Shown here in pieces: positions 3,317 through 6,237 of a stretch of 64,000 nt of DNA. Numbering within the stretch: the first letter of the stretch is position 1; each line of letters opens with the position of its first letter. This stretch comes from Gloeomargarita lithophora Alchichica-D10 (GTDB lineage Bacteria > Cyanobacteriota > Cyanobacteriia > Gloeomargaritales > Gloeomargaritaceae). The stretch is taken from positions 1,867,791 through 1,931,790 of the forward strand of contig NZ_CP017675.1 in the NCBI RefSeq assembly GCF_001870225.1. Direction: 5' to 3'. Under the pieces are notes generated by a model. The model made no database searches. It was not told the DNA's origin and was given only the letters and a program-made list of their open reading frames with translations. The position numbers and the translations under genes were made by a program.

Positions 3317-3449
3317 GTTTAATCCCCTTGCACCCCTAGAAAACCGATGTTACTTTTATAGTTATCTTTAATTTCATCACCTCACCTGGGAATCCATATT
3401 GGTTACGCATAAACCGGTGAGGTTTCCCAACGGTGTGAGCGAGGGGTGT

Positions 3450-4496
3450 ATGGTAGCGCAACGGTGGCCGGAATTGGCTCGCCAGGGGGATATTAACCGG
3501 GTACAACGGGTGGTGCGCTCGGCACTGGGTGCGGGGCTGACCCAGGTTAGCTATCTCCAAAAACCGCCGGTTTTGCAGGTGGAATTGACCTTATCCACAG
3601 CGGATATTACTCCGCAACAACGCCGCCGGTTGGCGGGTCGCCTGGGGCGATTGGTGCGCTGTGGTTCCTTTGGATTTCGACAGATTGATCTGCGGGTGGC
3701 CCAGGCAACGGCGCAGGTGCTTTGGCAGACGGAAATCGTTTCCCCCCCACGGCGTTTGCCCTGGGCTTTGCCCCTGGGTTTGCTGGTGGCGGCTACGGGC
3801 ATGGGTGGGGGCTGGTGGTGGCACAGTTCTAGTTCCCAGGCGAGTTTGCCCCAGGGGGAAATGCCGCCATCGCTTGTCCCGGCGGTGCCCGAACCAGGGG
3901 CGGTCACGGTGCCGCCGGTGCCTTGGGCGTGGAGTGTACAAAGGGTGATTGACCGCCGGTTTTTAGCCCAGGCGTTGGGTCGCCAGGGAGTGCGCCTGCC
4001 AGCGGGGACAGCGGTGTATGTGGCGCAGATACAACCCGGGTTGGCCGGGCCAGCCTATAGGTTTTACGAGGCGGGGCTGGGGGCGTTTAGTCAGCAATTT
4101 TGGCCGGCTTCAACGGTGAAAATTTTACCAGCGGTGGCCGCTCTGGAATGGGTTCATGCCCAGGGGTTTACCAGCCAAGCGACGGTGGAGTTGCCCTGGA
4201 TGCGGGATCGTTTGGAGCGGATTATTGACCGTTCGATTCGGGAAAGTTCCAACCTGGATTATGACTTGACGGTGCAGTTGGTGGGGTTGGATGGGCTGAA
4301 CCAGGGGTTTCTCACCCCGGAGCGGGGGTTTCCCACGACCCAATTGCATCGGGGCTATAGCGGTAGCTTAAATATCTATACCAGTCCGGGGGTGACCCTG
4401 CGGGAGGGCAACCGGCGGAAATACATCCCGCCCCGGAGCCAGCGGGGGGGGGGAGTTGTGCGGGGCAGGGAAATTGCGCCAATTTGTTTGAAATGA
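3450..4496 (+). CDS. beta-lactamase-like serine hydrolase domain, 5' part of a split gene
   Basis: The ATG at 3450 is preceded by GAGGGG; the frame is open further upstream to a TTG. Residues 1-98 form a cyanobacterial N-terminal domain (ELARQGD, then a beta-alpha-beta-like pattern). A membrane helix lies at about 103-123, followed by a Pro-rich linker. A class A beta-lactamase/PBP-like domain follows, with the active-site S-T-V-K at 221-224 (as SxxK) and S-S-N at 266-268 (as SDN). The third motif is missing: the frame runs into ten G (4444-4453) and ends in about 15 unrelated residues. The missing part continues in the -1 frame, so one extra G would join the two halves. It is probably a membrane-anchored periplasmic cell-wall enzyme. 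Confidence 0.72.
   Translation: MVAQRWPELARQGDINRVQRVVRSALGAGLTQVSYLQKPPVLQVELTLSTADITPQQRRRLAGRLGRLVRCGSFGFRQIDLRVAQATAQVLWQTEIVSPPRRLPWALPLGLLVAATGMGGGWWWHSSSSQASLPQGEMPPSLVPAVPEPGAVTVPPVPWAWSVQRVIDRRFLAQALGRQGVRLPAGTAVYVAQIQPGLAGPAYRFYEAGLGAFSQQFWPASTVKILPAVAALEWVHAQGFTSQATVELPWMRDRLERIIDRSIRESSNLDYDLTVQLVGLDGLNQGFLTPERGFPTTQLHRGYSGSLNIYTSPGVTLREGNRRKYIPPRSQRGGGVVRGREIAPICLK
4444..4453. repeat. run of ten G at the gene break
   Basis: A homopolymer of ten G lies exactly where the beta-lactamase-like frame leaves its family sequence and the next frame picks it up. Eleven or eight G would give one continuous frame from 3450 to 5776. Such tracts slip readily in replication, transcription and sequencing. 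Confidence 0.9.
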
Positions 4497-5776
4497 CGGA
4501 GGCGGTGCGGCGGGTGGTTCTGCATGGGGAGTTGGATGCCCAGGAGCAATTTCGCATCCCCGCCGAGGATGTTGCCCGTTTAACCGAGTCCCTGTGTCGG
4601 GCGGAGCCGTCTTTTTTTGCGCCGGGGGCAAGGTTGGCTCTGGGGCGTGTCCCCCGCATTTGCCATAAACCGGGTTGGGTGTTGAGCCGGGATTGTGTGG
4701 ATAGTGGCGTGGTCATCGCCGGGGGGGAACGGTACCTGTTGGCGGTGGCGATGCCCGCCTACCGAGCGGGGGACAATTGCCAGGGGTTGTCAAAGGTGGC
4801 CCAACAGGTGCTGACGGCTCTGCGCCAAGCTCCCCCCGCGCCCATGCCCCACCAACTGAATCGAGGTCTGCCGGTGCAGGCGCAACTGCTGTCCCGCAAT
4901 GGGGTGCATGAGGTGGTGGTGCAGGTGACGGGAGCCGACCGGGTGGTGGTGTGGCTGGATCAGGATGCCCTGGGGGAGCAAACCGGGGTAGGGCCGGAAT
5001 ATCGCTGGGTGACCCGGATCAGGACGGGTGGCGAACGGTTACTGCGGGTGCAGGCGTGGCAGGGGAATCAGGTGGTGGCCTACCACAGTCAAAAAGTGAC
5101 CATCAAGGGGCTGGAAGTGGCCTGTGAAGTTCCCCTCACCCCCAACGCTGGCCGGGTGATTTACCGCGGGCCAACCCATACTCCCCAGGTGGCTCTTTCC
5201 TTTGACGATGGCCCTGATGCCAAGCAAACCCGGCGCATTCTGGATATTCTGCAACGGGAGGCGGTGCCCGCCACGTTTTTTGTCCAGGGACGCATGGTGC
5301 GCCAATCCCCCCACCTGCTCTGGCGGATGCGCACCGAGGGGCATGAGATCGCCAACCACACCACCAATCACCCCACCCTGACGGCCTTGAGTGGTTCCAG
5401 GGTGCGCCAGGAAATTCGCACCACCCAGGATTTGGTCTGTCAAAAGGCGGGGTTCCGTCCCCAGTATTTTCGGCCTCCCTACGGCAGTTTTGACCGCACC
5501 ACCGTCCGTCTCGCCGCTGAATTGGGCCTATCGCTGGTAATTTGGGATGTGGATACCCGCGACTGGCAACACCGCAACCCCCAGCGGATTATCCAGACCG
5601 TACAAAACCAAGCCCGGGCTGGCTCGATTGTTCTCATGCACGACATCTACGGCAGTACCGCCGAGGCCCTGCCGGGGGTGATTGCCGCCCTGCGTGCCAA
5701 GGGCTTAGAATTGGTCACTGTTGCCCAACTGCTCACCACGCCAGAGCCGCCAAAGCCCCCAAAACCCAACCCCTGA
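4493..5776 (+). CDS. NodB-type polysaccharide deacetylase with hydrolase C-terminus, 3' part of the split gene
   Basis: The ATG at 4493 overlaps the previous stop as ATGA. The frame is also open upstream to the G run, encoding GNCANLFE-type sequence that fits a serine-hydrolase helix. Residues 1-90 complete the beta-lactamase-like domain, with HKPGW replacing the KTG region. A beta-rich linker domain spans about 120-205. A full NodB domain follows: SFDDGP 236-241, HTTNHP 289-294, RPPYG 327-331, DVDTRDW 352-358 and LMHD 381-384, so all five catalytic motifs are present. The family removes acetyl groups from peptidoglycan or other polysaccharides. Expression could be by frameshift fusion or by coupled restart at ATGA. 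The two catalytic domains point to cell-wall remodelling. Confidence 0.8.
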   Translation: MTEAVRRVVLHGELDAQEQFRIPAEDVARLTESLCRAEPSFFAPGARLALGRVPRICHKPGWVLSRDCVDSGVVIAGGERYLLAVAMPAYRAGDNCQGLSKVAQQVLTALRQAPPAPMPHQLNRGLPVQAQLLSRNGVHEVVVQVTGADRVVVWLDQDALGEQTGVGPEYRWVTRIRTGGERLLRVQAWQGNQVVAYHSQKVTIKGLEVACEVPLTPNAGRVIYRGPTHTPQVALSFDDGPDAKQTRRILDILQREAVPATFFVQGRMVRQSPHLLWRMRTEGHEIANHTTNHPTLTALSGSRVRQEIRTTQDLVCQKAGFRPQYFRPPYGSFDRTTVRLAAELGLSLVIWDVDTRDWQHRNPQRIIQTVQNQARAGSIVLMHDIYGSTAEALPGVIAALRAKGLELVTVAQLLTTPEPPKPPKPNP

Positions 5777-6237
5777 TGACCCCCGAACATGAGTTTTTAT
5801 TGCAAATTGTCGCCGCCGTCGCCTGGAGTGATGGCCGCCTCACCCGCCAGGAAATTCACCTGATTTTGGAGCAATTGGCACCGGCATTTGCCCCTCAAGA
5901 GCCGGAAAACCAGGATCAACTGTGGAGCGAACTCTATGACCGCTTGTTCGCCCACTATGACCTGGAGGAATTATTGCAACAGGAACCGCCCCCCCAGCAC
6001 CGGGAATGGCTGTTGCGGTTAAGTTATCTGCTGATCCAATCTGGGCAAAACCCCAGGGAAACCGCCATTGCCCCCGCCGAACAACGGGCCTATCGCCGCC
6101 TGGTGGAATGGTTGAACCTACCTCCAGAGGCCGTAGAGCAAATCGAACAGGCCGCCCAAGGGGATGTGATTTTCCACCAAGGGCAACCCCTAGCGGCTCT
6201 GCGGGGGCACATCGAGCAATTCTTTGGCGGGGCTTGA
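5776..6237 (+). CDS. TerB-like protein
   Basis: The ATG shares its A with the upstream TGA (ATGA overlap at 5774-5778), so translation is probably coupled to the deacetylase gene. The 153-aa product begins with EFLLQIVAAVAWSDGRLTRQE, a TerB-fold signature: an all-helical acidic domain with an A-x-x-DG-x-(L/I)-x-x-x-E pattern. TerB-like domains are known from tellurite-resistance operons and from many stress or membrane-associated proteins; the exact role is unknown. There is no membrane helix. The 3' end overlaps the convergent chorismate lyase gene by 48 bp. Confidence 0.7.
   Translation: MTPEHEFLLQIVAAVAWSDGRLTRQEIHLILEQLAPAFAPQEPENQDQLWSELYDRLFAHYDLEELLQQEPPPQHREWLLRLSYLLIQSGQNPRETAIAPAEQRAYRRLVEWLNLPPEAVEQIEQAAQGDVIFHQGQPLAALRGHIEQFFGGA

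What the first reader, a model, noticed from the sequence alone, without database searches (positions are those of the whole stretch)
3450..5776. Beta-lactamase-like plus NodB deacetylase gene split at a ten-G run
The serine hydrolase loses its frame exactly at ten G, and the rest of that domain plus a complete NodB deacetylase continues in the -1 frame. One extra G would give one protein of ~775 residues with a membrane helix, an SxxK hydrolase and a deacetylase. The second frame also has an ATG overlapping the first stop. This could be phase variation, slippage, coupled translation or a sequencing error.
Basis: partly seen in the sequence, partly recalled or inferred. Interest (0 to 1): 0.68.

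Follow-up and report, generated by a model that had tools for sequence, protein, structure and literature searches.

The report
Deacetylase gene split, likely sequencing error
A cyanobacterial cell-envelope enzyme gene looks cut in two at a run of ten G, but every relative searched has it whole and the same genome shows the same one-base-short break in genes it should need, so the break is most likely a miscounted run in the sequence rather than biology.

Summary
In detail: ten G at 4444-4453, frame 1 stops at 4496, and the rest of the protein continues in the -1 frame to 5776. The gene is one open frame across this site in all seven other Gloeomargaritaceae genomes searched, and both halves are as conserved as intact copies, so the split is recent or not real. 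Five more genes of this assembly (purK, cobS, hisF, an RNase II-family gene, a lipoprotein gene) break exactly at runs of nine or ten G/C. All six are one base short. The split hisF, purK and cobS have no second whole copy, though the organism should need hisF in mineral medium. The best explanation is under-calling of long G/C runs in this assembly; the living cell probably has one gene of about 775-785 residues, a membrane-anchored beta-lactamase-like hydrolase fused to a NodB deacetylase. Phase variation, slippage, programmed frameshifting and coupled translation have evidence against them but cannot be excluded without reads. The fusion itself is real and, among the genomes searched, essentially confined to this family.

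The parts
3420..4442 (+). Frame 1: N-terminal ~110-residue domain, hydrophobic stretch, first part of the beta-lactamase-like domain
   Evidence: ORF; aligns to L009 residues 2-346 and in alignment A1
3759..3821 (+). Hydrophobic stretch, likely membrane anchor
   Evidence: read by eye from the translation; no predictor run
4110..4121 (+). STVK (SxxK motif), frame 1
   Evidence: invariant in 7 of 7 aligned orthologues
4245..4253 (+). SSN (SxN motif), frame 1
   Evidence: invariant in 7 of 7 aligned orthologues
4444..4453 (+). Run of ten G where the frame breaks; lies in a variable loop of the hydrolase domain
   Evidence: spacing to flanking motifs is one base short of all 7 aligned relatives
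4493..4496 (+). ATGA overlap of the frame 2 ATG with the frame 1 stop
   Evidence: Leu codon in L009 and L010, so not conserved there
4454..5776 (+). Frame 2: rest of the hydrolase domain, linker and NodB polysaccharide deacetylase domain, to the stop
4667..4675 (+). KPG, in the place of the KTG motif, frame 2
   Evidence: invariant in 7 of 7 aligned orthologues
5198..5737 (+). NodB domain with SFDDGP, HTTNH, RPPYG and LMHD motifs (limits approximate)
   Evidence: PF01522 E 1.9e-36; PDB relatives PdaC, PgdA-type, ArCE4A; motif roles recalled
5776..6237 (+). Downstream ORF (weak TerB/DUF533 hits), start overlapping the NodB stop; same neighbour in L009 and L010

Best explanation
The split is most likely an artefact: the assembly counts one G too few in a long G run, as it does at other nine- and ten-base G/C runs. 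In the cell the locus is then one gene for a membrane-anchored, two-domain envelope enzyme: a class A beta-lactamase-like serine hydrolase domain followed by a NodB (CE4) polysaccharide deacetylase. Shown: the frame break, continuity in relatives, purifying selection on both halves, and five further breaks of the same sense. Inferred: that the cause is under-calling, and that the product acts on peptidoglycan or another envelope polysaccharide.
For: Orthologue open across the site in 7 of 7 other family genomes. Both halves conserved like intact copies: C part 84.5% identical to L110, dN/dS 0.167, against 0.112-0.195 in the intact C-part pairs; N part dN/dS 0.247-0.280, against 0.124-0.345 in intact pairs. 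Five other genes of this genome switch frame exactly at 9-10 base G/C runs: hisF, purK, cobS, an RNB-domain RNase and a lipoprotein signal peptide. The phase change is the same in 6 of 6, each one base short. The split hisF, purK and cobS have no second whole copy in this genome. BG-11 as printed holds no amino acids or nucleobases, and G. lithophora C7 was grown in it (PMC6087745, passages). Precedent: under-called homopolymers in a PacBio assembly produced 142 coding-sequence annotation errors in C. autoethanogenum (PMC4687164, passages). The genome has 340, 60, 21 and 0 runs of 8, 9, 10 and 11 or more; at the 9/8 ratio about 4.5 runs of 11 or more would be expected.
Against: No reads could be examined, and the sequencing method of this assembly was not found. 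Most ten-base runs are in frame, so errors are not universal: 4 of 21 ten-base and 2 of 60 nine-base runs were found broken. Relative G001 also has no run of 11 and G005 has two, so their absence here is only suggestive. Real slipped-strand mutations would also rise with run length. Growth-medium evidence is for strain C7, while the window's strain is inferred.
Confidence: 0.78

Rival explanations
1. The run really is ten G in the sequenced culture: a recent single-base slipped-strand mutation that inactivates this non-essential gene.
For: Long G runs are mutable (general knowledge). The long run is specific to this species; relatives have G runs of at most 6 there. Both halves show no decay, as expected of a very recent event.
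Against: Does not account for the same deficit in hisF, purK and cobS, all in the same sense (6 of 6; two-sided sign probability 0.031). A mutL homologue is present, so that gene gives no sign of a repair-defective lineage.
Confidence: 0.12
2. Phase variation: the run length varies between cells and switches the envelope enzyme on and off.
For: Poly-G tract inside an envelope-enzyme gene, the kind of target seen in known phase-variable genes (PMC3711429, passages).
Against: The long tract is absent in 7 of 7 relatives. Similar tracts sit in frame in what read as housekeeping genes (dnaK twice, rplD, hflX, radA, ribD, aroK; named by eye from translations), and broken ones in hisF and purK, which is not a contingency-gene pattern.
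Confidence: 0.05
3. RNA polymerase slippage or -1 ribosomal frameshifting at the G run makes some full-length protein from a true ten-G gene, and likewise for hisF and purK.
For: All six breaks need the same shift. G GGG GGG could re-pair after a -1 ribosomal slip (inference).
Against: In E. coli and Buchnera all transcript insertions in homopolymers were at A/T, none at G/C (PMC5574713, passages). purK has the run as C on its coding strand, the other five as G, so one ribosomal slip codon would not serve all. No conserved signal in relatives.
Confidence: 0.04
4. Two proteins made by coupled translation through the ATGA overlap.
For: ATG 4493 overlaps TGA 4494-4496.
Against: The codon is leucine in L009 and L010. 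The second product would lack the N-terminal membrane segment, and the hydrolase motifs would be divided between the two products. Continuous in 7 of 7 relatives.
Confidence: 0.01

Closest known systems
False frameshifts from under-called homopolymers (C. autoethanogenum, PMC4687164)
   Same: Single bases missing in homopolymers split genes, including ones needed for survival; all in one sense
   Different: There proved by Illumina and Sanger resequencing; here inferred from relatives, and seen at long G/C runs
CE4/NodB peptidoglycan deacetylases (PgdA, PdaC; PF01522)
   Same: NodB domain with the family motifs; PDB relatives 6h8l PdaC E 3.7e-43 and 2c1g E 6.1e-41
   Different: Fused to a beta-lactamase-like domain rather than to the partners known to me (recalled) from PgdA or PdaC
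Beta-lactamase2 family (PF13354)
   Same: SxxK, SxN and KxG-like motifs in order; 7 of 7 domains match, best E 8.7e-8
   Different: Weak similarity (L009 and L010 below the Pfam cut-off), KPG instead of KTG, fused to NodB

Membership tests
Sequencing or assembly under-call of a homopolymer | Break lies exactly at a long homopolymer | tested here: met
Sequencing or assembly under-call of a homopolymer | Same sense of error at other homopolymers of the assembly, including genes the cell needs | tested here: met
   6 of 6 same sense; hisF, purK, cobS
Sequencing or assembly under-call of a homopolymer | Independent reads show the longer run | not testable with these tools
   no reads on hand
Phase-variable (contingency) gene | Run length varies among cells | not testable with these tools
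   no reads on hand
Phase-variable (contingency) gene | Tract kept or recurrent in orthologues | tested here: not met
   longest G run at the site in 7 relatives is 6
Programmed frameshift gene | Frame transition conserved in relatives | tested here: not met
   7 of 7 relatives continuous across the site
NodB/CE4 deacetylase (PF01522) | Family profile over cut-off | tested here: met
   125.2 bits against cut-off 23.1
NodB/CE4 deacetylase (PF01522) | Deacetylase activity | not testable with these tools
   needs assay
Beta-lactamase2 (PF13354) | Family profile over cut-off | tested here: inconclusive
   7 of 7 orthologue domains match, best E 8.7e-8, but L009 and L010 below cut-off
Beta-lactamase2 (PF13354) | Fold | tested here: inconclusive
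   model of L009 had pLDDT below 50 over nearly all of this domain

The most novel reading that the evidence does not exclude
The runs really are short, and this cyanobacterium lives with hisF, purK, cobS and the envelope enzyme all out of frame because its RNA polymerase or ribosomes slip at long G/C runs, a tolerance to frame breaks known to me mainly at A/T runs.
Probability: 0.04. Interest if true: 0.8.

Novelty: not a real feature. Interest (0 to 1): 0.13.

Why it matters
It warns that frame breaks at long G/C runs in this genome should not be read as pseudogenes or phase-variable loci until reads are checked; hisF, purK and cobS would be wrongly scored as lost. If the breaks were real, they would be an unusual case of a free-living organism decoding through G/C runs. 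The intact gene is a two-domain envelope enzyme essentially confined to Gloeomargaritaceae among the genomes searched.

Tried and rejected
Cap at ten: I first thought runs of eleven or more were truncated to ten; the hisF and RNase breaks at nine-base runs show that under-calling by one fits better. Old pseudogene: rejected because dN/dS and identity match intact copies. Frame switches at runs of 5-7: 15 of the 20 listed were inspected and look like ordinary gene junctions. Nine-base runs with odd scores: L143, L150, L162, L165 and L184 were read as gene starts or ends, not breaks; L140 and L178 were printed there too and left unresolved. Ten-base runs L095, L102 and L107 were left as probable natural ends. 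The structure model of L009 was poor (mean pLDDT 45.9), so no fold search was made. The PDB profile search with the hydrolase domain gave only a chance-level hit. Plasmid search: no match. Papers on how this genome was sequenced were not held.

Full report
What was checked. The window is bases 1,867,791-1,931,790 of a single-contig genome of 3,049,282 bases. The species name Gloeomargarita lithophora is my inference from size and relatives (a close relative is titled Gloeomargarita sp. SKYG116). The sequence shows ten G at 4444-4453; frame 1 stops at 4496 and the -1 frame stays open to 5776.

One gene in relatives. The 782-residue orthologue in L009 was searched against the 8 genomes of the family. 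All seven others are open across the site: G001, G003, G005 and G006 as one frame over the whole match, G002 likewise apart from one TGA inside the match (its ORF is read from the ATG at L010 3020), G004 from query residue 111, and G007 on a contig piece that spans the site. G006 and G002 appear to be the same assemblies as L009 and L010 (matching hits). Only the window's genome is in two pieces at this site. The site is a variable loop; the other seven hold at most six G there, and their spacing between conserved motifs is equal, while the window's is one base short.

Not a decaying gene. Nei-Gojobori values on each half show dN/dS 0.247-0.280 for the N half and 0.137-0.186 for the C half of the window gene against six relatives; pairs of intact genes range 0.124-0.345 and 0.112-0.195. 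dS is near saturation for the distant pairs, so the closest comparison (C half against L110, dS 0.57, dN/dS 0.167) carries most weight.

The same fault elsewhere. The genome holds 21 G/C runs of ten and none longer, 60 of nine and 340 of eight (from the 523 matches). I took the surroundings of all 21 and all 60. A codon-usage model flagged 2 of 21 ten-base runs (this one and L089) and 4 of 60 nine-base runs; of those four, L132 and L141 are breaks, L165 is a gene junction (it reads like nusA-ylxR, names recalled) and L150 an intact gene start. By eye and homology two further ten-base runs are broken: L094 and L097. Gene identities: L089 is purK (G000 alone in two pieces, 7 of 7 relatives whole); L132 is hisF (the halves match adjacent profile positions 1-77 and 79-174; 7 of 7 relatives whole); L097 is cobS (7 of 7 relatives whole); L141 is an RNB-domain RNase (open frame 475 in G000 against 686-699 in six relatives, with G007 not clearly assigned); L094 is a putative lipoprotein whose homology begins at about the run and whose signal peptide lies in the other frame (signal peptide read in six relatives). 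In total 4 of 21 ten-base and 2 of 60 nine-base runs are broken, and all six show the same phase change.

Controls. At the 26 runs of ten or more in G001 and G005 the model flagged none. Fisher's test of 4 of 21 against 0 of 26 gives p 0.034, but the comparison is not even: two of the four were found by closer reading that the relatives did not all receive (only L199 and L200 were read). With the model alone it is 2 of 21 against 0 of 26. In the 332 kb examined, none of 31 clearly coding eight-base G/C runs showed a switch, and 15 of 20 switches listed at shorter runs were inspected and look like gene junctions. A Viterbi pass over the window listed no frame-shift event by its own rule; the known break appears in its segment list as two abutting segments of different frame, and I saw no other such pair without a gene boundary, by eye.

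Interpretation. Histidine, purine and cobalamin genes split in a phototroph are hard to accept as real. G. lithophora C7 was grown in BG-11, whose printed composition has no amino acids (PMC6087745, passages); cross-feeding in a non-axenic culture is possible. Homopolymer under-calling with one-sided deletions is documented (PMC4687164, passages). Transcript insertions in homopolymers of E. coli and Buchnera occurred only at A/T (PMC5574713, passages). GeneTack's authors treat singleton frame breaks as likely indel mutations or sequencing errors (PMC3711429, passages). I conclude that an assembly error is most likely (0.78).

The gene itself. An N-terminal domain, a hydrophobic stretch (by eye), a beta-lactamase-like domain with STVK, SSN and KPG invariant in 7 of 7 aligned orthologues (Beta-lactamase2 in 7 of 7, best E 8.7e-8), and a NodB domain related to PdaC and PgdA. 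In a survey of 194 genomes of the class, the eight family genomes match strongly and 3 of the other 186 weakly and in part. A likely role is editing of peptidoglycan or a related envelope polymer; this is inference. The model of L009 has low confidence over the hydrolase.

Limits. No reads, no confirmed sequencing method, unnamed relatives, and by-eye calls for some runs.

Noticed in passing
L089 3001-3010 (G000:C1:145267-145276): purK is in two frames at a ten-base run; whole in 7 of 7 relatives.
   Followed up: yes
L132 1502-1510 (G000:C1:289279-289287): hisF is in two frames at a nine-G run; no whole hisF elsewhere in the genome.
   Followed up: yes
L097 3001-3010 (G000:C1:1946182-1946191): cobS is in two frames at a ten-G run.
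   Followed up: yes
L141 1502-1510 (G000:C1:736278-736286): An RNB-domain RNase gene is in two frames at a nine-G run.
   Followed up: yes
L094 3001-3010 (G000:C1:1430459-1430468): Signal peptide of a putative lipoprotein is out of frame with the mature part at a ten-base run.
   Followed up: partly
L200 near 1510: In relative G001 a gene resembling a phosphate-transport permease (name recalled) stops shortly after an in-frame ten-G run; cause not studied.
   Followed up: no
window 5776-6237: Small ORF with weak TerB/DUF533 hits overlaps the NodB stop and keeps this place in L009 and L010.
   Followed up: no
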